DNA of 32,393 nucleotides from Candidatus Marinimicrobia bacterium CG08_land_8_20_14_0_20_45_22 (GTDB lineage: Bacteria > Fidelibacterota > UBA2242), in assembly GCA_002774355.1 (NCBI GenBank), contig PEYN01000090.1:1-32393 (forward strand), read 5' to 3'. Each line of letters starts with the position of its first letter. The stretch's first letter is position 1. A program made the position numbers and the translations under genes. Shown here piece after piece: positions 5,225 to 26,385 of the stretch. The notes under the pieces are model-generated. The model ran no database searches. It was not told where the DNA came from and saw only the letters and a list, made by a program, of their open reading frames with translations.

Positions 5225-7123
5225 TCATTTTTTCCCTGTTGACACAGCCGGAATCGGCTTTTCAGTCGGTTTGCCATTTTCGACAATCCGGACTGTCTCG
5301 ATGATATCTCCATTGGCAGAATGAACATAAAGGTCAATATTTTGCCCAGCCACTTCAATGATCAAGTAATGTTCCTGCGATGAAAATTTAGCGATCGAAT
5401 TTTCCCATGGGACTTTTTGATCCGATTTTCCGTAGTACGGCGCACCTGCGCCTCCCGTAATCAATTCCCAGACAGGATTTTTAAAACGCGGATTGGGTTT
5501 GCCATTCGGATAAACCGGCGTCTTCGCATCAATTTTCAAGCGAACATAGTTGTGTTCGTGCCCAACGATAACCGCGCGCACTTTTTCATTTTGAGAAATA
5601 GCTGTCCAAAGTCTATCTCGACCTTTTAGAACATGCGATCGGTCGAGCGGCTTGCCATCGATATTTTTATTGAGTAATAAATCGCCGCCGTTATACCACA
5701 TCGCGTCGCGTATATGTCCGCTACACGGGAAAGGCGGTTCATGTGTAAACACGAAAACATGGCTAATGGCCGGATCGGCAGTGGTTTTTTCCAGTAAATT
5801 CCGAAACCATTCATACTGATTGTTAAAAACGTAGCCTTCGATGCTACCGCCAATGTCTTCGGCGTAACTTGCCCACCAATAATTGGAATTTAGCGAAATA
5901 AACCGTGTGTTGTCCCAATCGAAATAATAAACGGTTTCTCGATATCTTGGTGCTTCCGGTTGTTCGGGTTTGGGAAAATCATTGTCCGGGTTAACGAAAC
6001 AGTTGGCAAAAAGCGTTTCGGTAGAATTGCCAAAAACCTTGTCCCGAACAATCGGGATACCGTAGTTTGACCGGGGATCTTTCCAATAGTCTATGACAAG
6101 GTCGTGGTTGCCGATACCTTCATAAATAGGGATTGAATGTCCGACCGGTTCGATCGAACATTTAAAAGCGTCCATTTGCGCGAGATAATCTCTTTCATCG
6201 GTCGTGTGTCCGTTGATCAAATCACCGGCGAATATGATAAACTCCGCGTCGTTCGACTTTGTACCTAAAACTAGGCTACGCAAAATAGCGAGATTCGTTC
6301 CGTTGAAATTCGTTGTGAATCCGCCGTATCCCGCCCGACTGTCTGACATTGCCGCAAACCGAAAATTGCCTGACTTCCCCGGCGTTCGGAATTCGTAGAT
6401 TCGAGAGGAAACGGTTACTGAATCGGCGATTGTAAAGACGGAATACAAATGCTGTTCGCCGGTTAAGCCATTGATTTTGACCTCATGATGTTTGTTCAAG
6501 GTGGAAGGATAAGTTTTTCCATCTAAAACGACTTTACCTTCCGACGGAAGATCGGTTTCCCATGAAATAACGACTTCATGTGCTGAGAAGACATCGATCC
6601 ACGGACCATCCGTTATGCATACGATTCGTCGGCTATTCCGGAACTCAAACCGTTTGTCAAAAATATATTGATTCGCTCCATCGGATTCCGGAATGACTAG
6701 CCGGTAACAGACGGTTCCGCCATCCAATTTTTTCATCGCGCCTCCCGGATCGTTGATCGGTTCCAGCAAACGCGTCAAATCGAATATCACGGAATGGCGT
6801 GTTGTCGGCGCTGTCAAATTCTCCTTCGCCGAATGGCGGTAAGCCGGAACAGGCGTCTCCTGATCGTGGAAGTAAGGACCGTAGTGGACGTATGCGGCTG
6901 GCATTGGACGCGTCGTTTCAAATTCGACAATGGCCTTCAGGCGTCCTTCATCGGTTATGATTCGCACCTCCGGTCCGGATTCCAAAATTCGCATCGAATT
7001 AGGAACAAGATCTTCCGGATTACCGGTCAATGGTGGCATTCCGAGCCTTCCCAATTGGGCGATGGAATCGCTGGTCATTAACAATATCAGTAAAAGGGAA
7101 ACGTAAGTCAATTTATGGTTCAT
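5225..7123 (-). CDS. Exported metallophosphoesterase, purple acid phosphatase-like
   Basis: 632 residues from the ATG at 7123, which follows GAGG at seven bases; an ATG four codons upstream lacks a site. A signal peptide occupies the first ~22 residues (LTYVSLLLILLMTSDSIA). Residues ~50-250 look like one or two beta-sandwich domains with fibronectin-like character, as in the N-terminal part of purple acid phosphatases. The calcineurin-type catalytic domain spans ~255-600, with GDLING (~300), GNHD (~338-341), FTHEPPF (~459-465) and GHEHNY (~521-526). The first metal motif, usually Asp-x-His, reads Asp-Ser-Arg (~261-263). The protein should hydrolyse phosphate mono- or diesters in the periplasm or outside the cell; substrate unknown. 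It stands alone, 100 bases downstream of the NTPase gene. C-terminus is lysine rich. Confidence 0.85.
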   Translation of the reverse strand: MNHKLTYVSLLLILLMTSDSIAQLGRLGMPPLTGNPEDLVPNSMRILESGPEVRIITDEGRLKAIVEFETTRPMPAAYVHYGPYFHDQETPVPAYRHSAKENLTAPTTRHSVIFDLTRLLEPINDPGGAMKKLDGGTVCYRLVIPESDGANQYIFDKRFEFRNSRRIVCITDGPWIDVFSAHEVVISWETDLPSEGKVVLDGKTYPSTLNKHHEVKINGLTGEQHLYSVFTIADSVTVSSRIYEFRTPGKSGNFRFAAMSDSRAGYGGFTTNFNGTNLAILRSLVLGTKSNDAEFIIFAGDLINGHTTDERDYLAQMDAFKCSIEPVGHSIPIYEGIGNHDLVIDYWKDPRSNYGIPIVRDKVFGNSTETLFANCFVNPDNDFPKPEQPEAPRYRETVYYFDWDNTRFISLNSNYWWASYAEDIGGSIEGYVFNNQYEWFRNLLEKTTADPAISHVFVFTHEPPFPCSGHIRDAMWYNGGDLLLNKNIDGKPLDRSHVLKGRDRLWTAISQNEKVRAVIVGHEHNYVRLKIDAKTPVYPNGKPNPRFKNPVWELITGGAGAPYYGKSDQKVPWENSIAKFSSQEHYLIIEVAGQNIDLYVHSANGDIIETVRIVENGKPTEKPIPAVSTGKK

Positions 7124-8475: not shown

Positions 8476-9717
8476 TTAGTTATAGAGATAATATTGCCGA
8501 CTCTTTTGTTTAAACGCCTCCACGTCCTTCTGCCATGTGGCGAGGATTTGTTCGGCACTTAAATTATCCATAACCATTTTCTGGACGCTGTCCGTACCGA
8601 AAGCTTTATTGAAACTGCCGACGCGCTTGGCGTCGAACAACGGTTGGTTCGGGTACAGCTTTCTCAGCGCCGTCAAAATGTGAATCTGCGTTTCGATTGG
8701 TTTGAATGTTCTGAAATTGATAATATGAATTTGCACTCCCTGCATCGTGATGTCTTTTCGAGATAAATAATAAGGACGAAAATGGAGCGGTCGGAAAACC
8801 ACGCCCGGAAGATGGTGATCGTTAAGTTCTGCCGCTAATTGATCGGCGTTAATCCACTCTTCACCGATAAGTTCGAACGGCAAGGTGTAGCCGACGCCAA
8901 TGTTGACTGTCGGCATCTCGCCAATTCCTCCGGTTGCCGCACAATGATAAGCGGTTTCCCAATGCGGGATATGCGGCGATGTCAACACCCAATTGAGCCC
9001 AGTGTCGTTCCAATTCATTTTTCGGTTCCAGCCTTTCATGGAAACGACGATCAAATTGCAGTTGATTCCGAATTCTGTGTTGAAATAATGCGCCAGTTCA
9101 CCGGCTGTCAATCCGTAAAGGTAAGGGATTGGATACATGCCGATGCCGGATTTGAACGCGGGGTCGAGCACCGGACCTTCAACGAGTTCGCCGCCCAGCG
9201 GATTCGGTCGATCTAGAACGATGAACGGAATATTGGCGTCTTTGGCGGCGGACATTGAGCGCGCCATCGTGTAAATGTAAGTATAAGTTCGGTTGCCAAT
9301 GTCTTGAATGTCATAGATAAGCGCATCGACATTTTTCAACATTTCAGGCGTTGGTTTATTTGTTTTTCCGTAAAGACTGAAAACCGGAACGCCTGTTCTG
9401 GGATCAACGAAGTTTTCGATATTTTCACCGGCAAAAACGTCACCGCGGACACCGTGTTCGGGACCGAAAAGAGCGACCAAATTTCCATTTTTATTCAGGA
9501 TATCGATCGTGGATTCGAGTTCGGAATTTACGCCGGTCGGGTTCGTGATGAGTCCGAGACGTTTTCCGCGGATCAAATCCATTTTCTCGGCGAACAGAAC
9601 GTCGATTCCGAGTTTGACGGCGGGCTTTTGATAATTCGGTTGTTGGGCGAAAGATGAGGACGTTAACCATACGATTGTGGCAAAGATGCTGATGGTATAT
9701 TTCCAGGTGTTTTTCAT
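8476..9717 (-). CDS. namZ: DUF1343 / NamZ-type exo-beta-N-acetylmuramidase, exported
   Basis: 413 residues with a signal peptide (residues ~7-24, ending SSSFA). The mature protein follows the DUF1343 pattern throughout: GKRLGLITNPTG (51-62), LFGPEHGVRG (83-92), PVFSLYG (111-117), DALIYDIQDIGNRTYTY (131-147), FIVLDRPNPLGG, GLTAGELA and a C-terminal Y-x-x-LYN-like end. Characterised members (NamZ of Bacillus and Bacteroidota) release terminal N-acetylmuramic acid from peptidoglycan fragments; the Glu-His of GPEHG is the conserved active-site pair. Export fits wall turnover and recycling. It has its own promoter, divergent from the purine phosphorylase/PBP1A pair. Confidence 0.9.
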   Translation of the reverse strand: MKNTWKYTISIFATIVWLTSSSFAQQPNYQKPAVKLGIDVLFAEKMDLIRGKRLGLITNPTGVNSELESTIDILNKNGNLVALFGPEHGVRGDVFAGENIENFVDPRTGVPVFSLYGKTNKPTPEMLKNVDALIYDIQDIGNRTYTYIYTMARSMSAAKDANIPFIVLDRPNPLGGELVEGPVLDPAFKSGIGMYPIPYLYGLTAGELAHYFNTEFGINCNLIVVSMKGWNRKMNWNDTGLNWVLTSPHIPHWETAYHCAATGGIGEMPTVNIGVGYTLPFELIGEEWINADQLAAELNDHHLPGVVFRPLHFRPYYLSRKDITMQGVQIHIINFRTFKPIETQIHILTALRKLYPNQPLFDAKRVGSFNKAFGTDSVQKMVMDNLSAEQILATWQKDVEAFKQKSRQYYLYN

Positions 9718-10725: not shown

Positions 10726-12888
10726 ATGGGAAAAGCGGAAAAGGAATTGGAAATTCTCAGCTGGACAAAAGCTTTTAAACGAGTTTTTTATATCTATTGT
10801 ATTGGCGGCGTTCTTGTTCTGGCTTTGTTTGCATTTTATTCTAAAGACCTTCCATCGATCGAACAACTCCAGAATTTCAATCCGGAATTGGTAACGCGCA
10901 TTTATTCCTCCGACGGTATAATTTTGCAGGAACTCTATACCCAACGACGAATCTATGTCCCGTTGGATCAAATTCCCCGTGCGATGATTGATGCTATCGT
11001 AGCCGTTGAAGATTCGCGGTTTTACAAGCATTGGGGAATCAGCATGCGGGATAATCTTCGGGCGTTGACTGTTGATGTTCTGACGCTCAGCAAAGCGCAG
11101 GGCGCCAGCACGTTGACCCAGCAACTCGCGCGAATTCTGTATGAATCCATCGGGTTCGATAAGACTTTTTCCCGGAAAATGAAAGAATTTCTGACCGCTT
11201 TACAGATCGAGCGGATGTACGGAAAAGACGAAATCGCCGAAATGTATATCAATTCCAGCTGGATGGGACATGGCGTTTACGGCATTCAGGCGGCGGCAAG
11301 ACGATATTTCAACAAAACGTCCGAACAATTGACGCCGGATGAATGCGCGTTATTGGCGGGTGTAATAAAGAATTCCGTCCGATTTTCTCCGCTCCGACGA
11401 CCGATCAGCGCTTTTGAGAGAAGGAATCTTGTCCTTAGAAAAATGGAAGAGATGGGATTTCTCACCGAAGAAGAATATGCTCTTTACAAAAATGCGCCGC
11501 TTCAGGTGTTAAAACCTGAACCGCCGGCAAGCACCGCTCCATACTTCGTGGAATATGTTCGCCAACTGTTGACGAAAGAAGATGACAAGTACGGATTTGA
11601 TATTTACCGCGATGGACTTTCGATTTATACAACACTTGACTCGCGTGTTCAATCTTGTGCCGATTCCGCATTCATTCAGTATCTGTCGCAACAGCAACAA
11701 TTACTTAATCAACGGCTTCTGAATAGTAAGACCGAAATTCAGTCACTGATTAAAGACACATCGTTGACCGTCCAGAATGTAAAGTTGATGATCCGTGGCG
11801 AAGTGCCGATGGCGCAGTCGCTAAAAGCGTCACTTATCGTTCAAGGCGCGCTCGTAGCCATCGATCCATCAACTGGCAAAATTTTAGCAATGGTCGGCGG
11901 GCGGGATTTTTCCGAATCGGAATTCAACCGTGTGACGCAGGCAAAACGTCAGCCCGGCTCGGTCTTCAAACCGATTGTTTTTGCCGCGGCTGTTGACAAT
12001 GGCTTTCCGGTGACGACTATGTTGCTAAATCAGCCGCTCGTGATCAACTTGCCGGACGGTACGCGCTGGGCGCCGAACAATTATGACATGACGACAAGCG
12101 GAAATACGACGCTCAGAGACGGATTGGCACATTCACTGAATCTCGTTTCCGTGCGGGTCGTCCACGAACTTATCTCGCCTTCGACGGTTGTTCAGATGGC
12201 TAAACACATGCACCTCACAACGAAAATTCCGGCGGTTGAAGCAATCGCGCTGGGCGCCGCTGAAGTCATCCCGCTGGAAATCACCTCCGCTTTCGGAATT
12301 TTTGACAATCACGGCGTTTGGGTCGAACCGTATGCTATTAAACGAATTGAAGACAAATACGGCAACGTAATCGTAGATTATTTGCCGCGCCGGGAACTCG
12401 TGCTCAGCGAGGAAACAGCCTATTTGATGACAAGCATGATGGAATCGGTGATGAATCGTGGGACTGGTGTGACGGCGCGCTCGGTTTATGGCTTCAGGTA
12501 TCCCGCCGCCGGAAAAACCGGAACGAGCAACAACTTCGCCGATGCATGGTTCATCGGATTCACACCGCATATCGTTGCCGGCGTTTGGGTCGGCGTCGAT
12601 AATCCTGCCGTTTCATTGGGTAGCCATCAGGCTGGTGCCGTCGCCGCATTGCCGATCTGGGCGACTTTCATGCGGGATACGCATTATGCGATGCGCTGGC
12701 GCGCACAGGATTTTACACGTCCGGAAGGAATCGTTGAGGTTGAAATTTGCAAAGAAACCAAACTACTGCCATCTCAGTATTGCCCCGTGGAAACAGAAAT
12801 CTTCACGAAGTCAACGGTTCCGACTGAACATTGCCCGATTCACAAAGAAATCAAAGGCGATGAAAAAAAAGATGGCGTGACTTTTTGA
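10726..12888 (+). CDS. ponA: Penicillin-binding protein 1A, bifunctional transglycosylase/transpeptidase
   Basis: 720 residues. One membrane anchor (~21-38) leaves the catalytic part in the periplasm. The GT51 transglycosylase domain (~50-230) has the catalytic Glu95 in VAVEDSRFYKHWG, GASTLTQQLAR (126-136) and LLAGVIKNSVRFSP. The transpeptidase domain (~370-650) has SVFK (Ser412-Lys415), SLN (470-472) and KTGTS (597-601), so all three penicilloyl-serine motifs are intact. The C-terminal ~50 residues contain two Cys-Pro pairs (QYCPVE, EHCPIH), a feature also seen in other class A PBPs. It polymerises and cross-links peptidoglycan. TAGGA lies upstream at short distance; the gene is the second of the purine-phosphorylase operon. 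Confidence 0.95.
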   Translation: MGKAEKELEILSWTKAFKRVFYIYCIGGVLVLALFAFYSKDLPSIEQLQNFNPELVTRIYSSDGIILQELYTQRRIYVPLDQIPRAMIDAIVAVEDSRFYKHWGISMRDNLRALTVDVLTLSKAQGASTLTQQLARILYESIGFDKTFSRKMKEFLTALQIERMYGKDEIAEMYINSSWMGHGVYGIQAAARRYFNKTSEQLTPDECALLAGVIKNSVRFSPLRRPISAFERRNLVLRKMEEMGFLTEEEYALYKNAPLQVLKPEPPASTAPYFVEYVRQLLTKEDDKYGFDIYRDGLSIYTTLDSRVQSCADSAFIQYLSQQQQLLNQRLLNSKTEIQSLIKDTSLTVQNVKLMIRGEVPMAQSLKASLIVQGALVAIDPSTGKILAMVGGRDFSESEFNRVTQAKRQPGSVFKPIVFAAAVDNGFPVTTMLLNQPLVINLPDGTRWAPNNYDMTTSGNTTLRDGLAHSLNLVSVRVVHELISPSTVVQMAKHMHLTTKIPAVEAIALGAAEVIPLEITSAFGIFDNHGVWVEPYAIKRIEDKYGNVIVDYLPRRELVLSEETAYLMTSMMESVMNRGTGVTARSVYGFRYPAAGKTGTSNNFADAWFIGFTPHIVAGVWVGVDNPAVSLGSHQAGAVAALPIWATFMRDTHYAMRWRAQDFTRPEGIVEVEICKETKLLPSQYCPVETEIFTKSTVPTEHCPIHKEIKGDEKKDGVTF

Positions 12889-13099: not shown

Positions 13100-13711
13100 A
13101 TGAAAAAAGTGGTTTCTCTTCTGTTTGTTGCGCTCCTCATTCTCGATGGTTGTTCGTCACTCTCCTTTATCCCGACGCCGGCTAAAGCGACGCTGGCAAC
13201 TACAGATTATGTGAATCAATCGTTGCAAAAAATGGTTGATGAAACAACTGTCAAGGTCATCGAACAAACCAAATCCATCATGGATGAGGCTCTGAAAGCC
13301 GACCGCGAAAAAATGGACTCGCTGAAAAGTATGATGGAAAACCAGCACAAAGACGTCCAAACCGTTCTCGCCAAAATGGAAGAAATCGATGCACTATCTG
13401 CGCAAATACGCGATATGGTCGGTAAAATGAAGAAGGATCTGAACGAAGCGAAAGCCGAAATGCTTGACAGCATCGATGTCGTTTGGGTCAGCGTTCGGAA
13501 TTTGGAAAAAGTCGATCAGGCAGTTCGGACGAATCTCACACAGATTGAAGCGAACATCGTTAAGTTACAGCAAATTGACGCTGAATTTACCGCATTGACC
13601 AATCAGATGAACCTGAATATCGAGGTATTACCGAAAGAGACGCTGATGAAACTTCGGGACGCCATTCAAAAATTTTACGAAGCACAAATCCCAATTCAGC
13701 CGGGGGAATGA
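13100..13711 (+). CDS. Coiled-coil lipoprotein of unknown function
   Basis: 203 residues. The ATG follows TGAGGT at seven bases. The N-terminus is a lipoprotein signal (KKVVSLLFVALLILDGC) with the lipidated Cys at residue 18; Asp at the -2 position of the lipobox is unusual. Residues ~40-170 are strongly heptad-like and charged (KMVDETTVKVIEQTKSIMDE, DREKMDSLKSMMENQHKD, MVGKMKKDLNEAKAEMLDSI), predicting a long coiled coil reaching from the membrane into the periplasm. The C-terminus ends in a Pro-rich tail. It sits 27 bases before the WD40-caspase gene and almost certainly forms an operon with it, so a tether or partner role for the protease is plausible, though that is inference. Confidence 0.82.
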   Translation: MKKVVSLLFVALLILDGCSSLSFIPTPAKATLATTDYVNQSLQKMVDETTVKVIEQTKSIMDEALKADREKMDSLKSMMENQHKDVQTVLAKMEEIDALSAQIRDMVGKMKKDLNEAKAEMLDSIDVVWVSVRNLEKVDQAVRTNLTQIEANIVKLQQIDAEFTALTNQMNLNIEVLPKETLMKLRDAIQKFYEAQIPIQPGE

Positions 13712-13738
13712 AATCCTGACCGGCGGAGGAATGAAGCG

Positions 13739-16700
13739 ATGAAAAACTATGCCTTATTTGCCCGAATTATTAATCCTGTTTTATTTCTTGTATTTTTAAC
13801 TGTCGCGCTGGCGATTTTCGCCCGACCAGTTTTTTGTCAAACCCTGACATTCGAACAGGCTAAAGCAAAAATGGCGGAGTTAACAACGCAGGTGAAAGCG
13901 CTCGATAAGGAAATCGCCGATGAACTTGATAAGGCGATTAAAATCGAGATCAATTCCATGCCTAAAGGTGAATTTGAAACAACGACTGCGTATGACGAGC
14001 GGCTCAAGCAAAATGAAGCGAAAAAAGCCGAACTCGTCGCCAAATTCGACGCAGTGAAAACCGAGCGGCTTGCCATTTTAAATAAAGAAATTGAAACTCT
14101 GACGACTCAGACTTACTCAATGCCTGTTGCAATCGAGCTCGGCGTCTATCGCGCTGATATGGAACGATTTCCATTTGTAGTTTCTTCGATGAATAAAAAA
14201 GGCTCTTTGCCGGTTTCCCGATCTATTGCGTCGCAATTTAAGGAGGCTTTCCCAACGCTGAGCCCCGTTGGATATTTTCAGATTCAGCGAGAAGGCGAAC
14301 CGCGTCTGGTATATGTGGTCGTTGAGTATAACAACGAGCCGCTTATCGCGCAGACCGATCGGAAAATCGAAGAAATCAAAGAAGCCGCTAGTTTAAAAGG
14401 ACATGGGCGGAAAATTAATGCGGTCGCTTTCAATCGAGATGGCAGTCTAATCGCCAGCGGAAGCGATGATAAACTCATCAAAATTTGGAGTGTGAAACAG
14501 AATTCTTTATTGACGACCCTTCAAGGACATGCGCGATATGTCAAATCGCTTGCCTTTCATCCGTTCGAACCAATTCTCGTCAGCGGTTGCAATGACGGCA
14601 ATGTCATCATCTGGCAAATTGAACAGTCGTCGCCGCTCAGAACCATTTTTGCCCATGAAAATGGTGTTAATTCGGTCGCCATCAGTTCTGATGGCAACAC
14701 GCTTGCAACTGCTGGGTTCGACAAGACAATCAAACTCTGGAATATTGCCGATGGACAATTGCTCAAAACCTTCACAGGCCACACGGATGAAGTCAAATCG
14801 GTTGCTTTCAGTCCAGACGGCTGGACTCTCGTCAGCGGCTCGCTTGATCTGTCGATCAAACTCTGGAATGTGCGTGACGGATCGCTGATCAAATCGACCA
14901 AAGGTCATCTGCTCTGGATCAATTCGGTCGCTTTTTCTCCCGACGGTGAACTGGTCGCCAGCTGTAGTGATGACCGAACGGTTAAACTATGGAGCGTGCA
15001 TGACCTCTCGCCGATTCGGAAAATTACCGGATTCTCCGCGCCGGTCACCAGTATCACTTTTAGTCGTCCGGAAGGATTGACGCTTGCCTGTGTAACGGAA
15101 GACGGCGAAATCACTTTCGTAAAAACCGAAGACGGATCGATTGTCAAAATGATCAAAGGTTCAACGGGAACAATTAAAAGCGCAAATTATGATTCTAACG
15201 GGAAAAAATTTGTCAGTGCCGGCGACGATAAGATCGTGAAAATATGGGAGATCGTCTATGATCCGATAAGCGAGTTAGCCAGCGCCGGATTCGGAACAAG
15301 CAGAAGCACAACCAATCAGACCGGACTTCCGCCAATGCTAACCGCCGATGTGCGTTTCTCGGAACCGTCTGGCAACAATTATCTCGACGCCAATGAAACC
15401 GGTGTCCTGACAATCGTTTTGAAAAATTCGGGAAAAGGCACGGCGGTCGGCGCTTCGGCAAATCTAATCGGAAATGTGCCAAAGGAACTCGATTTTCCGA
15501 TGAAAACCTATATCGGCGACATTGCCCCCGATTCTCTCAAGACTATCGAAATTCCGCTCATGGCGCGCTACAAAATTCCATCCGATTCTGTCTCGCTCAT
15601 CTGCAATATTACCGAAATGTCCGGATTTAACATCGATCCGATGCGGATACAGTTTCCGACCAAAGAATACAATATCAAGTTGGTAAAAGCCGGTGTTGTC
15701 ATCGACGATAATTCGCAAAACGGTATGATCGAATCGGGCGAAATCGTCGATATCACCGTGCGAATTCAAAATCAGGGAACCAGCCTCGCGAAGAGCGTCG
15801 TCGCTGTCATTCGCATCGGCGAGAATGTCTTTTATGCTGGAAAAATGGCGCAGGAACGGTTTGAAAAATTCGATCTCGGCGACATCGCTTCCGGAGATTT
15901 CAAAGATGTTTCGGTGAAAATCTTCACCAATGCCGTCGCAACGGATGTGCCGGTTTTCCTGACGCTCTCTGAATATTACCGCGAATATGGCGCGCAGAAT
16001 ATTCCGCTTGAACTCGCTTTTAATAAACGCATCACGACGATGCAGGAATTTATCGTTCAGGGAAAAGATGCCGGTGCAGGTTTTCAAACCGGCGGTTTTT
16101 CCATCGATGTGGAGATGAACATTCCGTCGGGAACGATCCGGCAGAACGACGCAGTTGCGCTCATCATTGCGAATCGCGATTACCAGAATGCCGACATTCC
16201 GGACGTCGAATACGCGCAGAGAGACGGCGAATTTATGAAGCAATATCTAATGAAAACGCTCGGCTATCGCGAAGGCAACATTTTTCTCGAAAAAGACGCA
16301 ACGCAATCGCGCTTCAAAACAGCTCTCGAAAAACTTAAAAATGCCGCAAGAGATACCGCCGACGTCTTTTTCTACTACGTTGGACACGGCGCTCCCGATC
16401 CGGAGCAAAAACGCGGCTTCTTCGTTCCCGTCGATTGTGACCCGAATTACGTGAGTATCGGCGGGATCGGTTTGGATGATTTCTACCGCGACCTCGAAAA
16501 CGTGAAGGCGAGAAATATCACGGTCGTCGTGGACGCGTGTTTCTCCGGTTCCAGCGATAAAGGCATGATCATCAAGAACATCAGTCCGGTAATGATCGAA
16601 GTGGAAAAGAAATATATCGGCGCGCCCAATTTAACGGAATTCACGTCGGCATCCGGCGACGAAGTCAGTTCATGGTTTCCCGAGAAAAAACATTCGCTTT

Positions 16701-16888
16701 ATACTTACTATTTTCTCAAAGGTTTGCAGGGTGAAGCCAATGCGAATAAAGATGGAATTCTGACGGTCGGCGAACTTCAAGCCTATCTGAATGAAAAAAT
16801 ACCTTATGAAGCGCGCCGACTGAATAATCGCCAGCAGACACCAAGCGTGACGCCAGAACGCGACAACCGGGTTTTGGTTCGGTATTAA
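13739..16888 (+). CDS. Exported WD40-propeller / CARDB-like / caspase-like (C14) protease fusion
   Basis: 1049 residues; the ATG follows GGAGG at nine bases. Order of parts: signal peptide (~8-34, LFLVFLTVALAIFARPVFC); charged helical region (~38-125, with PKGEFETTTAYDERL at 75-89); a small alpha/beta region (~126-215); seven WD40 repeats (~217-505); a linker (~506-532); two beta-sandwich repeats of CARDB/NEW3 type (~533-640 and ~645-765); and a peptidase C14 domain (~800-1048). The catalytic dyad is intact: His883 in YYVGHGAP and Cys934 in VVVDACFSGSS. SASGDEVS follows at 970-977, near the pocket in this family. Such domains are caspase/metacaspase-like cysteine proteases; WD40 fusions are usually taken as ligand-sensing. 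Here the whole protein is exported. The C14 specificity (Arg/Lys versus Asp) cannot be read. Confidence 0.9.
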   Translation: MKNYALFARIINPVLFLVFLTVALAIFARPVFCQTLTFEQAKAKMAELTTQVKALDKEIADELDKAIKIEINSMPKGEFETTTAYDERLKQNEAKKAELVAKFDAVKTERLAILNKEIETLTTQTYSMPVAIELGVYRADMERFPFVVSSMNKKGSLPVSRSIASQFKEAFPTLSPVGYFQIQREGEPRLVYVVVEYNNEPLIAQTDRKIEEIKEAASLKGHGRKINAVAFNRDGSLIASGSDDKLIKIWSVKQNSLLTTLQGHARYVKSLAFHPFEPILVSGCNDGNVIIWQIEQSSPLRTIFAHENGVNSVAISSDGNTLATAGFDKTIKLWNIADGQLLKTFTGHTDEVKSVAFSPDGWTLVSGSLDLSIKLWNVRDGSLIKSTKGHLLWINSVAFSPDGELVASCSDDRTVKLWSVHDLSPIRKITGFSAPVTSITFSRPEGLTLACVTEDGEITFVKTEDGSIVKMIKGSTGTIKSANYDSNGKKFVSAGDDKIVKIWEIVYDPISELASAGFGTSRSTTNQTGLPPMLTADVRFSEPSGNNYLDANETGVLTIVLKNSGKGTAVGASANLIGNVPKELDFPMKTYIGDIAPDSLKTIEIPLMARYKIPSDSVSLICNITEMSGFNIDPMRIQFPTKEYNIKLVKAGVVIDDNSQNGMIESGEIVDITVRIQNQGTSLAKSVVAVIRIGENVFYAGKMAQERFEKFDLGDIASGDFKDVSVKIFTNAVATDVPVFLTLSEYYREYGAQNIPLELAFNKRITTMQEFIVQGKDAGAGFQTGGFSIDVEMNIPSGTIRQNDAVALIIANRDYQNADIPDVEYAQRDGEFMKQYLMKTLGYREGNIFLEKDATQSRFKTALEKLKNAARDTADVFFYYVGHGAPDPEQKRGFFVPVDCDPNYVSIGGIGLDDFYRDLENVKARNITVVVDACFSGSSDKGMIIKNISPVMIEVEKKYIGAPNLTEFTSASGDEVSSWFPEKKHSLYTYYFLKGLQGEANANKDGILTVGELQAYLNEKIPYEARRLNNRQQTPSVTPERDNRVLVRY
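14387..15253 (+). repeat. Seven WD40 repeats in the caspase fusion protein
   Basis: Seven units of about 42 residues begin with (G)H or an equivalent turn and end in W-like dipeptides: IKIW, VIIW, IKLW, IKLW, VKLW, ITFV and VKIW. Units 1 and 3-5 match the consensus best (VNSVAFSPDG, SGSxDxTIKLW); unit 6 is the most degenerate and lacks the Trp. Seven blades are enough to close a single propeller. Confidence 0.9.
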
Positions 16889-16999
16889 GAAAGAAATTGT
16901 GTAAGGCCTAGGATAGAGCACAACCAAAGTCTCGATATTCGCTAAAAATTTGCTTAAACTTGATCTGTCGATAAGCAATTGAATATGAAAGTTTGAACT

Positions 17000-17854
17000 A
17001 TGAATCGTATCTCACTCGTCGGATTGTGTTTTTTATCGTTACTGAGTCTTAGTCGGAGCCGCGCGGCGATTCCGGTTGTGATCGATACCATCAAAGTCTT
17101 TGATGAATCCGTTCCGCCGATGGAAGCCAAGAACCGAACACTGGCATTCGCGCGGGAATGCGCTATCCAGAAAGCCGTTCCGGAACTCGTTGCGACGTCG
17201 TCCCTGATTTCGGATATGCGGGCGGAAGTGGGAAAGACCGGCGAAGAGCAGACTTCGTTCAGTATTTTCGCGATTTCCTCGCAGGCTGGATACATCGTCG
17301 ATGAAACCGTTTCGCCGATTGAGATGAAACCCGGAAACGGCGTTATTCGGTATCACATCAGACTCAAAGCGAAAGTCGAGCCGGTAAAAGGCGAGCGCAA
17401 CCCGTCGATCGCTCTTGATCTTCAGGCTAAGAGCAATTATTTGAAGGACGGCGAACAGCTGATCCTGACAGCGAAATCCAGCGTGGACGGTTATCTTTAT
17501 CTGTTTTATTTTCTATCGGATAATACCGTACTGCTGATGTTTCCGAATTTCATCTCGAAGGACAATTTATGCAAAACCAACATTCCGGTGCAAATTCCAA
17601 CTTTGGAAGACCAGAAGCGTGGATTGCGATATGTCGTTTCGGCAATTCCGGGCAGGAAAGTTACAGCCGAGAACATTTTAGGCGTGTTCTGCGTCAATAA
17701 GATCGCCGGAATCGATCAGTTTGTTGGTGTCAAACAGGGAATGGCGCTCGTCACCGGCGGCGACGAAAGTTTCGCCGACTTCCAGAAATGGTTGGCGAAC
17801 GTTCCGCTCTCACAAAGAGTGGAAAAAGCGGTTCCGATTCATATCGTCAAGTAA
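17000..17854 (+). CDS. Exported DUF4384 protein
   Basis: 284 residues with a signal peptide (~3-22, ISLVGLCFLSLLSLSRSRA). Residues ~25-130 resemble the alpha/beta module seen in FlgT-like and other surface proteins, with a stretch of the kind EAKxRTLAFARECAIQKAVPEL. Residues ~138-250 match DUF4384: LTAKSSVDGYLYLFYFLSDN followed by VLLMFPN and an IPG turn. DUF4384 domains are repeatedly found fused to, or next to, caspase-like and kinase-like domains in bacteria (recollection). The gene lies 111 bases after the protease gene on the same strand, with no clear terminator between. Function unknown; a substrate, regulator or partner of the protease is the natural guess. Ribosome site weak. Confidence 0.82.
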   Translation: MNRISLVGLCFLSLLSLSRSRAAIPVVIDTIKVFDESVPPMEAKNRTLAFARECAIQKAVPELVATSSLISDMRAEVGKTGEEQTSFSIFAISSQAGYIVDETVSPIEMKPGNGVIRYHIRLKAKVEPVKGERNPSIALDLQAKSNYLKDGEQLILTAKSSVDGYLYLFYFLSDNTVLLMFPNFISKDNLCKTNIPVQIPTLEDQKRGLRYVVSAIPGRKVTAENILGVFCVNKIAGIDQFVGVKQGMALVTGGDESFADFQKWLANVPLSQRVEKAVPIHIVK

Positions 17855-22661: not shown

Positions 22662-24269
22662 ATGGAATTTCAGAACTTGATTCTAAAAATTTCAATGCAA
22701 TTTATCAATCTGGATTTGAACGAACTGAATACGAAGATCGTTGATACGCTGAAAAAGGTCTGTAAGTTCACCGAAGTTGCGGGCGGTTATGTTTTTATTC
22801 TATCTGATGACAGACGATTTATCTCGGGGATACATCAATGGAATTCGTTAAACGAAAAACCGGTCATTCAAGAGATACAATCTGCGCCAGTTACCCGTTA
22901 TTGGTGGTGGGCAGAACAAATTATGGATAAAAAACCGATATATATTTCAGACGTTGCCAACCTGCCCGACGAATGTGAAAGTGAGAGAAAAGAGTTCGTT
23001 TCCCGGAAAATTCAGTCGATCCTGATCGTTCCGATGGTCTTTAATAATGATGTTATCGGATGTTTGGGATTTTATACGGTTGAAAAAACACGAAACTGGT
23101 CATCACGTGAGATTTCCGCACTTCAAACCATTGCGGAAATCATTGCACGAGCTGTCATCTCGAAGAAAAGTGAAAAAACGTTGAAGGATTCGGAACAAAG
23201 ATATCGGTTTCTCGTCGAAAACGCTAACGATGCCATCCTCATCAATCAAGGAGGGCGTTTTGTTTTCTTCAATCGGTTGTTTTGTGAAATGCTTGGATAC
23301 ACACCTGACGAGTTATCGCAAATTGAATATATGGATGTTTTTTCCGCCAGAGGCACTGAACTTCTTCACGAGCGAGAAAAACTTCGGAATAGAGGTTTTA
23401 ATGTATCTCCCCGTTATGAAACGACATTCGTTAGAAAAGACGGAACGATCATCGATGTCGAGGTCAATGTTTCTATTGTCGATTATTTGGGTGCGCCTGC
23501 GTCTCTGGCGATTGCCCGAGATGTCAGCGAACGAAAAAGACTCGAGAGGGAATTTCAGGAGATGAAAGTTCAATATCTGAAGAAACAAAGGCTGTCATCT
23601 CTTGAAGCGATGTCGGACGACATGGTACACGATATCAAGAACACACTTTCGATTATTAGCGGAAGAGCGCAAATGCTTTCCAGCCGACTTCCCGATCTCA
23701 AAGAACCTGCTATCATCATCCGTTATGCCAAACAGATCGAAAAAATGGTCAGCGCATTTTTAAAAAAGATTCAGATGGAAAAAGACCTTAGCCGAAGATC
23801 GCTTGATTTAAACGAATTGATCAAGACGGAAATCACTTTCTTTGAATCGAATAGCTATTTCAAGAATGAAATCACCAAACGATTTCAATTGGAGAAGAAT
23901 ATTCCTCCGATTTCCGGCGCTTACGTGGATTTTTCTCATGGAATCATGAACATCGTTCAATTTTCAGCTCTTTCTATGCAGGATTCACCCCAAAAAATTT
24001 TGACAATTCGAACATCCTCGGTTCCCGAAGGTGTCCGAATCGAAATTTCATCCACCGGCAAAGAAATACCGGCGGAAATCGCATCGAATCTCTTTTCTCC
24101 CATCGGAATCAGTCGTCTTCGTTCAAATCAGGAAGAACAGGAAAATCTGCCAATACCGGCAGTAAACTTGTACCATTCATATCTATTGCTTCAACCTTAC
24201 GGCGTTATTTTCGACGTGGAAAGCAAGCCGGATGTCGGGACCACCTTCCGCTTGACCATCCCAACGTGA
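22662..24269 (+). CDS. GAF-PAS sensor with histidine-kinase architecture but degenerate ATP-binding domain
   Basis: 535 residues, no membrane span. GAF domain ~15-165 (GGYVFILSDD, ILIVPMVFNNDVIGCLGFY); PAS ~175-292 (YRFLVENANDAILI, MLGYTPDEL, RYETTFVRKDGT, ARDVSERK); dimerisation/phosphoacceptor helix ~305-375 with His323 in DMVHDIKNTLSIISGRAQML. The C-terminal part (~415-535) ends like a kinase (VESKPDVGTTFRLTIP), but the N box reads GIMNIVQFSALSMQ, with Phe/Leu where the second Asn and Asp should be. The G1 box reads STGKEIP instead of D-x-G-x-G, and no GLGL-type G2 box is present. Autophosphorylation is doubtful; it may act as a pseudokinase or be phosphorylated by a partner. The next gene, which shares its PAS type, starts 19 bases on. 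Confidence 0.85.
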   Translation: MEFQNLILKISMQFINLDLNELNTKIVDTLKKVCKFTEVAGGYVFILSDDRRFISGIHQWNSLNEKPVIQEIQSAPVTRYWWWAEQIMDKKPIYISDVANLPDECESERKEFVSRKIQSILIVPMVFNNDVIGCLGFYTVEKTRNWSSREISALQTIAEIIARAVISKKSEKTLKDSEQRYRFLVENANDAILINQGGRFVFFNRLFCEMLGYTPDELSQIEYMDVFSARGTELLHEREKLRNRGFNVSPRYETTFVRKDGTIIDVEVNVSIVDYLGAPASLAIARDVSERKRLEREFQEMKVQYLKKQRLSSLEAMSDDMVHDIKNTLSIISGRAQMLSSRLPDLKEPAIIIRYAKQIEKMVSAFLKKIQMEKDLSRRSLDLNELIKTEITFFESNSYFKNEITKRFQLEKNIPPISGAYVDFSHGIMNIVQFSALSMQDSPQKILTIRTSSVPEGVRIEISSTGKEIPAEIASNLFSPIGISRLRSNQEEQENLPIPAVNLYHSYLLLQPYGVIFDVESKPDVGTTFRLTIPT

Positions 24270-24288
24270 AATGAAAGGAGAGAAAACG

Positions 24289-26385
24289 ATGAAGAAACTC
24301 AATATAAAAACTGTGTCGGAAGAAAGTGAGCAACCTGTCTATCCGGTAAAAAAAGTGTCTGACCAAGCTGAAAATATAATCGATCATCAGGAGCAAGTTT
24401 GGCGGCTTCGAAAGATGAATGAAATCTTGCTGTCGCTTGCCCGATTTCGGTCGGGAAAAGAAGATATTCCGCTGGAACTGGAGATGATCACAGCGGCATC
24501 CGCACAGATGTTGAACACGGATCGATGTAGTATTTGGCTCTTTGACGCAAGTAAAACGCAGATAACCTGTATCGATCTTTTCGACCGGCATCTGAATCAG
24601 CATATGCACGGCGATGTGTTATACAGAAAAAATTATCCAACCTATTTTCACGCTATTGAAACCGATTCGTTCGTAGATGCTACGGACACCTACGCCGATC
24701 CGCGAACCAGTGAACTTAAAGACGATTATCTGAAACAACTCGGTATTGCATCGCTTCTCGATACTGCTATTATATCGAAAGGAAAACGGATCGGGCTTTT
24801 TTGCAATGAACAAATCGGAAAATCGCGGGGATGGAGCGATGACGATAAAGAGATCGTTTCCATGTTGAATGAAATGATCGCGATCGCCATAGAAAATATT
24901 GAAAAGAAAAAAGCACTGGCTGATGCCCAAGAAAACCAGAATAAATTTGAGAGGTTATTCGATTCGAATCCGGAGCCTGCCGTTTTTATGGACAAAAATT
25001 TCTGTATCATTAATGTGAACTCCAGATTTACAGAGGTTTTCGGATGGACGGTCGATGAGATTGCAGGAAAGCACATCAATGAAGTCGTCGCTGATAAAGA
25101 AATGCTTATCGAGGCAAAATCGCTGGATAATGCGGCTGAGAAAGGTTATTTACATCACGATACGCTAAGGAAGCGAAAAGACGGGACACTCGTTGCAGTT
25201 TCCATTTCAGCGTCACCAATCTATATCAAAGGCGAGTTGGTGAATTTCTTCGCAATGTACAAGGACATCTCCGAACAAAAACATCTCCAAGACATCAATC
25301 ACGTCGTGTACGAAATTTCTCAAGCGGTTCAGGCTACCGACAAATTGCCTGAATTATACCAAAGCATTTATCAAACGCTCAAGCGCGTGGTTCCGTCTAA
25401 CAATTTTTATATCGGATTCTACGATCCGGATAAAAGCGAAGTAATGATTCCATTTCACATTGACGAAGGCGTTAGTCAGCAGTGCATCGCAGACGAAGTT
25501 TATTCGTTGCTGGCAAAGGAGATCGTCAATTCCGGAAAACCGCTTTTAATGGAGAAATCCAAGTTAAAAAACCTAATGCGAAAGAAGGGAATTATCAACG
25601 CTGGACTTTTACCCGAGGTATGGTTTGGGGTTCCGCTCCACGCAAAGGGGCATATCATCGGATTGTTTAGTTTTCATCATTTTACTAAAACTGATGCGTT
25701 TTCAGAAAAGCAGATAAGTTTGCTCGAATCGATCGCGGAATCCCTTGCGATTGCCATTCAATATAAACAGCATGAACTTCAAGTGCGGGAATCCGAAGCG
25801 CGTTATCGCCTGCTCGTCGAAAATGTCAATGATGCTATTGTAATCAGTAAACAGAATAATTTCATCTATTTCAATCAGCAATTCGCTACGATGCTTGGGT
25901 ATGCTTATGGAGAACTGCTGATGAAGGATTACCGCGAAGTTTACACGACGCAGGGGCTAGAAATTCTTCATGAGCGCGGGAAACGGCGTGAACTCGGCGA
26001 ATATGTTTCGTCTCGATACGAAACGACTTTCCGAAGGAAAGACGACACAGATATCGATGTGGAAGCTAATGTGACGATCATTGAAATTGAAGGCGATAAA
26101 GCAACGTTTGCAGTCATTCGCGACATCTCTGAACGAAAACGCATCGAACAAGAACGGGAAAAAACTATTCAGGAACTTCAGAGCGCACTCGCCAATGTGC
26201 GAACGCTGAGAGGGCTTATCCCGATTTGTGCTAACTGCAAAAAAATTCGCGATGACTCTGGCTATTGGAGCGACGTGGAGAAATATATTTCAGAGCATTC
26301 GGATGCCGATTTTACGCATGGAATTTGTCCCGATTGTATGAAAAAACTTTATCCCAACTACCGAGATAAGTCTGAAAAGAAATAG
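24289..26385 (+). CDS. GAF-PAS-GAF-PAS sensor protein with C-terminal four-cysteine motif
   Basis: 698 residues from the ATG at 24289, chosen because AAAGGAG lies eight bases before it; an ATG six codons earlier overlaps that site. GAF1 ~45-205; PAS1 ~216-332 (NPEPAVFMDKNFCIINVN, YKDISEQK); GAF2 ~340-492; PAS2 ~500-618 (YRLLVENVNDAIVIS, RYETTFRRKDDT, VIRDISERK). A short coiled coil (~618-640) leads into LIPICANCKKIRDDSGYW and HGICPDCMKKLYP, with Cys647, Cys650, Cys680 and Cys683. That tail is found at the end of many bacterial PAS/response-regulator proteins and may bind zinc, but its function is not settled. No kinase, cyclase or DNA-binding domain. It probably signals through the preceding protein. 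Cytoplasmic. Confidence 0.87.
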   Translation: MKKLNIKTVSEESEQPVYPVKKVSDQAENIIDHQEQVWRLRKMNEILLSLARFRSGKEDIPLELEMITAASAQMLNTDRCSIWLFDASKTQITCIDLFDRHLNQHMHGDVLYRKNYPTYFHAIETDSFVDATDTYADPRTSELKDDYLKQLGIASLLDTAIISKGKRIGLFCNEQIGKSRGWSDDDKEIVSMLNEMIAIAIENIEKKKALADAQENQNKFERLFDSNPEPAVFMDKNFCIINVNSRFTEVFGWTVDEIAGKHINEVVADKEMLIEAKSLDNAAEKGYLHHDTLRKRKDGTLVAVSISASPIYIKGELVNFFAMYKDISEQKHLQDINHVVYEISQAVQATDKLPELYQSIYQTLKRVVPSNNFYIGFYDPDKSEVMIPFHIDEGVSQQCIADEVYSLLAKEIVNSGKPLLMEKSKLKNLMRKKGIINAGLLPEVWFGVPLHAKGHIIGLFSFHHFTKTDAFSEKQISLLESIAESLAIAIQYKQHELQVRESEARYRLLVENVNDAIVISKQNNFIYFNQQFATMLGYAYGELLMKDYREVYTTQGLEILHERGKRRELGEYVSSRYETTFRRKDDTDIDVEANVTIIEIEGDKATFAVIRDISERKRIEQEREKTIQELQSALANVRTLRGLIPICANCKKIRDDSGYWSDVEKYISEHSDADFTHGICPDCMKKLYPNYRDKSEKK

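What the first reader, a model, noticed from the sequence alone, without database searches (positions are those of the whole stretch)
13100..17854. Envelope caspase-WD40 module: lipoprotein, exported WD40-CARDB-caspase fusion and exported DUF4384 protein in one operon
Seen: three adjacent plus-strand genes, each with an export signal (lipobox Cys18; signal peptides ~8-34 and ~3-22). The middle one has an intact His883/Cys934 caspase-type dyad. Known: bacterial caspase-like proteins are usually discussed as cytoplasmic effectors in defence or cell death. Inference: here the protease would work in the periplasm or at the outer membrane, with the lipoprotein as tether and the DUF4384 protein as partner or substrate. 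That makes it a candidate undescribed envelope stress, proteolysis or predation-defence system.
Basis: partly seen in the sequence, partly recalled or inferred. Interest (0 to 1): 0.78.

Follow-up and report, generated by a model that had tools for sequence, protein, structure and literature searches.

The report
Mobile exported caspase-protease gene cassette
Three neighbouring bacterial genes form a transferable unit that sends a caspase-type protein-cutting enzyme, built onto a WD40 propeller, outside the cytoplasm together with a small lipoprotein and a DUF4384 partner; the unit has moved between bacterial families and once had its cutting domain exchanged, which makes a poorly studied kind of exported bacterial caspase testable.

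Summary
Three plus-strand genes encode a lipoprotein (13100-13711), a secreted coil-WD40-CARDB-caspase fusion with intact His883/Cys934 (13739-16888) and a secreted DUF4384 protein (17000-17854), in a Neomarinimicrobiota MAG. The three-gene order recurs in four further genomes, three of them with unrelated flanks. In G013 a 4,880-bp segment holding exactly these genes is missing from two congeners whose flanks close up over 47 bp. That copy is 77% identical to one in another family but 38% to the window's: the cassette moves horizontally. Its caspase domain is exchangeable: two cassette lineages share lipoprotein, coil, WD40 and CARDB but carry caspase domains from different clades (AU p = 0.0005), with the crossover at the CARDB-caspase linker. 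More widely, secreted caspases sit beside DUF4384 genes on the same strand in many phyla and carry an EF-hand-like loop (81 of 96; 0.06 expected). Best reading: an envelope-tethered, calcium-assisted protease with a constant anchoring and recognition part and a replaceable cutting part. Export is well supported; trigger, substrate and role are inference. Exported bacterial caspases, WD40-caspases and caspase-DUF4384 links were already known, so this is a new variant of a known kind.

The parts
13100..13711 (+). Lipoprotein, 203 aa: signal peptide and lipobox Cys18, then a long, almost Pro/Gly-free, probably coiled helix
   Evidence: Cys18 invariant in homologues; one Pro and one Gly in residues 41-190, strongest hydrophobic period 3.5; directly upstream of the WD40-caspase in 8 of 8 genomes of the phylum where both are seen
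13739..16888 (+). Exported fusion, 1049 aa: signal peptide, coil, WD40 propeller, two CARDB-like sandwiches, caspase domain
   Evidence: Pfam, AF2 model, hydropathy and divergence
13739..13837 (+). Signal peptide of the fusion, residues 1-33
   Evidence: 52% identical to the congener vs 91% for the rest; only hydrophobic segment of the protein
13850..14104 (+). N-terminal coil, residues 38-122, proposed docking site for the lipoprotein (inference)
   Evidence: two long helices in the AF2 model
14366..15259 (+). Seven-bladed WD40 propeller, residues 210-507
15338..16042 (+). Two CARDB-like beta-sandwiches, residues 534-768
   Evidence: PF07705 E 7.5e-5; AF2
15707..15742 (+). EF-hand-like loop DNSQNGMIESGE in CARDB-2, residues 657-668
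   Evidence: similar loop in 44 of 72 homologues vs 0.82 in shuffles
16106..16885 (+). Caspase domain, residues 790-1049; exchanged as a unit in the G013/G050/G069 cassettes
   Evidence: PF00656; swap
16385..16387 (+). Catalytic His883 (YYVGHG)
   Evidence: invariant
16538..16540 (+). Catalytic Cys934 (DACFSG)
   Evidence: invariant
16739..16774 (+). EF-hand-like loop NANKDGILTVGE in the C-terminal part of the caspase domain, residues 1001-1012
   Evidence: strict pattern in 81 of 96 homologues vs 0.06 in shuffles; the window has N in place of the first D
17000..17854 (+). Exported DUF4384 protein, 284 aa, probable partner of the caspase
   Evidence: PF14326 40.9 bits vs cut-off 27; adjacency across phyla; AF2 pLDDT 77.5

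Best explanation
A horizontally moving three-gene cassette for an envelope protease. All three products cross the inner membrane (well supported by comparison). The lipoprotein is anchored in a membrane, probably the outer one, and its long helix pairs with the N-terminal coil of the fusion and holds it there (inferred). The WD40 propeller and CARDB domains recognise a ligand or partner (inferred). The DUF4384 protein is the usual companion of exported caspases, as regulator or client (association shown, role inferred). Ca2+ bound at the EF-hand-like loops keeps the caspase domain competent, and it cuts after Arg/Lys (inferred from the dyad and two conserved Asp, D829 and D932). The caspase domain is a plug-in that can be replaced while the tether, the recognition part and the DUF4384 gene stay (replacement shown).
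For: Same three genes in the same order with changed flanks. Empty site: exactly the three genes, 4,880 bp, absent from two congeners, whose flanking gene is 96-98% identical. Cassette 74-77% identical between two families vs 34-38% within one. Lipoprotein upstream of the WD40-caspase in 8 of 8 genomes. DUF4384 within 5 kb and on the same strand in 36 of 77 caspase loci and for 25 of 32 DUF4384 loci of the phylum. Signal-peptide-like N-termini. Dyad and two Asp invariant. EF-hand-like loop 81 of 96 vs 0.06 in shuffles. Caspase swap at the linker, AU p 0.0005.
Against: No direct evidence of contact between the three proteins, of proteolysis or of calcium binding. G050 and G069 carry lipoprotein and fusion without an adjacent DUF4384 gene, and G018 and G020 carry DUF4384 without a caspase, so the partners are separable. 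41 of 77 caspase loci show no DUF4384 within 5 kb (25 of them with at least 3 kb of flank on both sides). The coil domain also occurs in caspases without the lipoprotein gene. The window's lipobox is atypical.
Confidence: 0.5

Rival explanations
1. Envelope conflict system: the WD40/CARDB part senses a phage, predator or rival's molecule outside the cytoplasm and unleashes the caspase to kill or disarm.
For: Patchy, mobile, with effector-domain exchange; weak match to the PADLOC caspase model; survey authors suggested extracellular or fratricidal roles (PMC3501461).
Against: No NTPase, gasdermin or nuclease partner; flanks are housekeeping genes, no defence neighbours; no relatives in phage records. 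Both swapped caspases keep the same predicted specificity residues.
Confidence: 0.17
2. General housekeeping processing or quality-control protease of the envelope, where WD40 and DUF4384 are scaffolds and mobility is incidental.
For: No defence partners; exported CARDB-caspases occur in many phyla; DUF4384 can occur without the caspase.
Against: Absent from most genomes even of its own family (8 of 16 family members have a caspase match in the first search), so it is dispensable; cassette transfer and domain swap.
Confidence: 0.25
3. The caspase domain is not an active protease; the fusion is an exported adhesion or scaffold protein.
For: Pseudo-orthocaspases with a lost dyad exist (PMC6426788).
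Against: His and Cys are invariant in the 24 aligned proteins, and the swap replaced one intact protease by another.
Confidence: 0.05
4. The three genes are neighbours by chance and unrelated in function.
For: Lipoprotein and DUF4384 homologues also occur alone.
Against: Conserved order with changing flanks and a precise empty site for exactly these three genes.
Confidence: 0.03

Closest known systems
Prokaryotic caspase homologues (orthocaspases/metacaspases, peptidase family C14, PF00656), surveyed in PMC3501461
   Same: Caspase fold by Pfam, HC dyad, WD40 as the commonest partner domain; N-terminal hydrophobic helices are common there
   Different: C-terminal caspase behind a coil-WD40-CARDB front, fixed lipoprotein and DUF4384 genes, EF-hand-like loop, mobile cassette with protease exchange
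Caspase-DUF4384 proteins (cyanobacterial orthocaspases, PMC8283722; alphaproteobacterial clade, PMC6426788)
   Same: Caspase and DUF4384 associated
   Different: There fused in one protein; here separate secreted genes in an operon
Anti-phage caspase systems (PADLOC caspase model; NACHT-caspase proteins)
   Same: A caspase attached to a recognition domain; patchy, mobile distribution
   Different: Exported; no NTPase, pore-former or nucleic-acid sensor; no defence neighbourhood
Other exported clan CD cysteine proteases (gingipain, clostripain; from general knowledge)
   Same: Caspase-like proteases acting outside the cytoplasm, often Arg/Lys-specific
   Different: Different families; no WD40/CARDB front or DUF4384 partner; not compared directly here

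Membership tests
Peptidase family C14 (prokaryotic caspase homologues) | Match to PF00656 over the curated cut-off | tested here: met
   61.2 bits vs 21.4
Peptidase family C14 (prokaryotic caspase homologues) | Catalytic His-Cys dyad | tested here: met
   H883 and C934 invariant in 24 proteins
Peptidase family C14 (prokaryotic caspase homologues) | Acidic specificity pocket (two conserved Asp) | tested here: inconclusive
   D829 and D932 conserved in all 14 compared; equivalence to the pocket residues inferred by motif only
Peptidase family C14 (prokaryotic caspase homologues) | Cleavage after Arg/Lys | not testable with these tools
   needs an enzyme assay
Orthocaspases sensu stricto (p10-less) | No p10 region, calcium-independent | tested here: inconclusive
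   about 110 residues follow the Cys, with an EF-hand-like loop in 81 of 96; definition from PMC5756287
Anti-phage caspase defence systems | NTPase, gasdermin or nucleic-acid-sensing partner | tested here: not met
   none among the cassette or flanking genes
Anti-phage caspase defence systems | Cytoplasmic location | tested here: not met
   signal-peptide evidence by comparison; not fractionated
Bacterial lipoproteins (gene 13100-13711) | Signal peptide with lipobox Cys conserved in homologues | tested here: met
   the window's own -2 residue (D) is atypical
DUF4384 (PF14326) | Match over the curated cut-off | tested here: met
   40.9 bits vs 27

The most novel reading that the evidence does not exclude
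An envelope-located surveillance protease in which a tethered WD40/CARDB recognition part controls, through Ca2+ and a DUF4384 regulator, an exchangeable caspase that acts on intruding or damaged proteins outside the cytoplasm: a mobile, modular extracytoplasmic counterpart of intracellular caspase defence.
Probability: 0.15. Interest if true: 0.85.

Novelty: new variant of a known kind. Interest (0 to 1): 0.57.

Why it matters
Exported bacterial caspases have been listed in surveys, but I found no function or defined system for them in the papers searched. A minimal three-gene unit with an exact empty site, a recurrent partner (DUF4384) across many phyla, and natural evidence that the protease can be swapped at a defined linker give direct handles: which genes suffice, where to join chimeras, and that calcium should be tested. 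It also offers a functional setting for DUF4384.

Tried and rejected
The PF00656 family search in the own genome returned nothing, although hmmscan of the window protein and a protein search both find the gene: a limit of that tool's first look. Foldseek of the DUF4384 model gave no match at E <= 0.001. Sequence search of solved structures found no relative of the caspase part and only weak matches for DUF4384, one of them a putative lipoprotein. Foldseek of the whole fusion shows only propellers in the 50 rows listed. Phage records: no match; plasmids: only distant caspase matches under 60% identity. Empty site for G004 in its congener G010: the flanking transporter gene is not there. The idea that DUF4384 takes over the lipid anchor where the separate lipoprotein is missing: lipobox in 12 of 46 vs 0 of 6, too weak. 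Considered and rejected: the conserved Cys at the end of the fusion's signal peptide as a lipidation site (bulky residue at -1). Promoter scan at chance level. Two paper searches gave nothing useful.

Full report
WHAT IS THERE. Between a nucleoside phosphorylase-PBP1A pair and a methyltransferase, then a polysaccharide deacetylase-PdxJ-asparaginase block, lie three plus-strand genes with gaps of 27 and 111 bp. They encode a 203-aa lipoprotein, a 1049-aa fusion and a 284-aa DUF4384 protein. In the fusion Pfam finds WD40 (E 2e-64), CARDB (E 7.5e-5) and Peptidase_C14 (E 1.6e-16). AlphaFold2 (mean pLDDT 82.9; pTM 0.49, so the placement of domains to each other is uncertain) gives a signal-peptide helix, a long coil (38-122), a small a/b domain, a propeller (210-507), two beta-sandwiches (534-768) and the caspase domain. 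The propeller matches solved seven-bladed WD40 structures at TM 0.95-0.97.

EXPORT. SignalP was not available, so the case is comparative. In the fusion, residues 1-33 are 52% identical to the congener against 91% for the rest, and no later segment is hydrophobic enough to span a membrane. Homologues have typical signal-peptide ends before Gln (LQA-Q, AIC-Q, AYC-Q). Over the wider family, 68 of 75 caspases and 34 of 37 DUF4384 neighbours have a strongly hydrophobic N-terminal stretch, against 245 of 560 other ORFs (a crude measure). The lipoprotein Cys is invariant in all six sequences aligned. The window's LDGC box is odd; the homologues are mostly canonical. Ser, not Asp, follows the Cys, which by the E. 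coli sorting rule would mean outer membrane (general knowledge; the rule may differ in this phylum).

THE THREE GENES ARE A UNIT. Lipoprotein-fusion-DUF4384 in that order occurs in G000 (window), G001, G004, G005 and G013. Flanks are shared only between the congeners G000 and G001; elsewhere they are a peptide transporter (G004), aromatic-pathway genes and a very long ORF (G005) and an oxidoreductase operon (G013). In other family members the two blocks that flank the window's cassette exist but lie apart. The clearest evidence is an empty site: L019 (G013) matches G011 and G007 at 93-95% up to base 7015 and at 88-96% from base 11896, while those genomes have 47 bp in between; the 4,880-bp difference contains exactly the three genes. 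The flanking gene is 96-98% identical in these congeners, and its best match in G050 is 45%. The G013 cassette is 77% (fusion) and 74% (lipoprotein) identical to G050 in another family, but 38% and 34% to the window in its own family. It has therefore moved between families; the direction was not determined, and gain in G013 was not told apart from loss in both congeners. In the phylum, the lipoprotein lies directly upstream of a coil-WD40-caspase in all eight genomes where both are seen (G000, G001, G004, G005, G013, G050, G069, G061); G006 is cut by a contig end. Shorter homologues of the lipoprotein occur alone beside unrelated genes.

CASPASE AND DUF4384 BELONG TOGETHER ACROSS PHYLA. A genome scan with the CARDB-caspase part gave 80 loci from Neomarinimicrobiota, Cloacimonadota, Nitrospirae, Deltaproteobacteria, Bacteroidetes, WOR-3 and others. 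Of the 77 with a called caspase ORF, 36 have a DUF4384 gene within 5 kb, all 36 on the same strand and 21 within 300 bp; 16 of the 41 without one have short flanks. In 245 genomes of the phylum, 25 of 32 strong DUF4384 loci lie within 5 kb and on the same strand of a caspase match (my count). With about one DUF4384 gene per 2.5-Mb genome, chance would give well under one such case. Fusions of the two are already published: 23 cyanobacterial orthocaspases (PMC8283722) and an alphaproteobacterial clade (PMC6426788). Some related clusters add an LPP20 lipoprotein and Ig-like proteins.

EXCHANGEABLE PROTEASE. On a tree of 91 caspase domains the window type (G000, G001, G004, G005) and the G013/G050/G069 type lie in different deep clades, although their lipoprotein, coil, WD40 and CARDB are one family. 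In 14 proteins, CARDB keeps the cassette proteins on one side of a branch (support 96/98), while the caspase tree rejects this (delta lnL 92.6, AU p 0.0005). CARDB in turn rejects the grouping seen with the caspase (AU p 0.0023). The groups were named after seeing the larger tree, so the p-values are somewhat optimistic, but the identity profile shows the same: G013 resembles the cassette family up to about residue 790 and from there resembles caspases of proteins with other front ends (54-73% against 31-51%). The boundary is the linker containing FSIDIExxIP. Both types keep His, Cys and the two Asp. The WD40 label itself needs at least seven changes on the caspase tree.

CALCIUM. An EF-hand-like loop (D.[DNS].[DNS]..[ILVF][TS]..E) is present in the last 110 residues of 81 of 96 caspases (0.06 in shuffles), and a similar loop in the CARDB region of 44 of 72 (0.82 in shuffles). 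The 96 are related sequences, so this measures conservation, not independent origins. The window's own C-terminal loop is NANKDGILTVGE, with N in place of the first D. Metacaspases are mostly Ca2+-dependent, whereas p10-less orthocaspases are described as calcium-independent (PMC5756287); calcium dependence here is a prediction, not a result.

MECHANISM. Shown: cassette, transfer, recurrent partners, intact dyad, domain exchange. Strongly supported: export. Inferred: lipoprotein as tether by coil pairing, propeller/CARDB as recognition part, DUF4384 protein as regulator or client, Ca2+ assistance, Arg/Lys cleavage. The biological role (quality control, processing or conflict) is open. No defence-type partner or neighbour was found, yet patchiness, mobility and domain exchange keep the conflict reading alive.

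COMPARISON AND NOVELTY. I found no description of this cassette, its mobility or the protease swap in the papers searched; the library lacks most subscription papers. New variant of a known kind.

Noticed in passing
window fusion residues 30-34; L015, L016, L019, L022, L144: A Cys sits at the end of the signal peptide in six of the WD40-type fusions (VFC, AYC, AIC, AVC, IIC), with a bulky residue before it; not a normal lipobox, unexplained.
   Followed up: partly
L137:846-1742 (G018), L138:6378-7274 (G020): DUF4384 genes 44-45% identical to the window's persist in genomes of the same order without any caspase match; their lipoprotein homologues lie on other contigs.
   Followed up: partly
L140:6250-6741, L149:5380-5874, L151:5488-5976, L152:4716-5207: A family of about 163-aa lipoproteins (SFIPTEGGAAKFNLATVEYV motif) related to the cassette lipoprotein is widespread in one genus of the phylum, in the two longer contigs read (G030, G237) followed by the same pair of genes, without caspases nearby.
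   Followed up: partly
L148:5627-9940, L020:10603-15665: Smaller caspase + DUF4384-lipoprotein clusters with an LPP20 lipoprotein gene next to DUF4384 and a Kre9/KNH-type Ig protein gene beside the caspase in L148.
   Followed up: partly
G169:C61:22302-27447 and other genomes of family f26: Tandem pairs of long proteins (about 1600 and 1000 aa open frames) that both match the CARDB-caspase profile, at the same spacing in many genomes.
   Followed up: no
window 8476-9717 (-): NamZ exo-muramidase (NamZ_N E 4e-85) upstream of the PNP-PBP1A pair.
   Followed up: no
window 22662-26385 (+): Two adjacent PAS/GAF sensor proteins; the second (704 aa) shows PAS and GAF domains only, with no kinase domain.
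   Followed up: no
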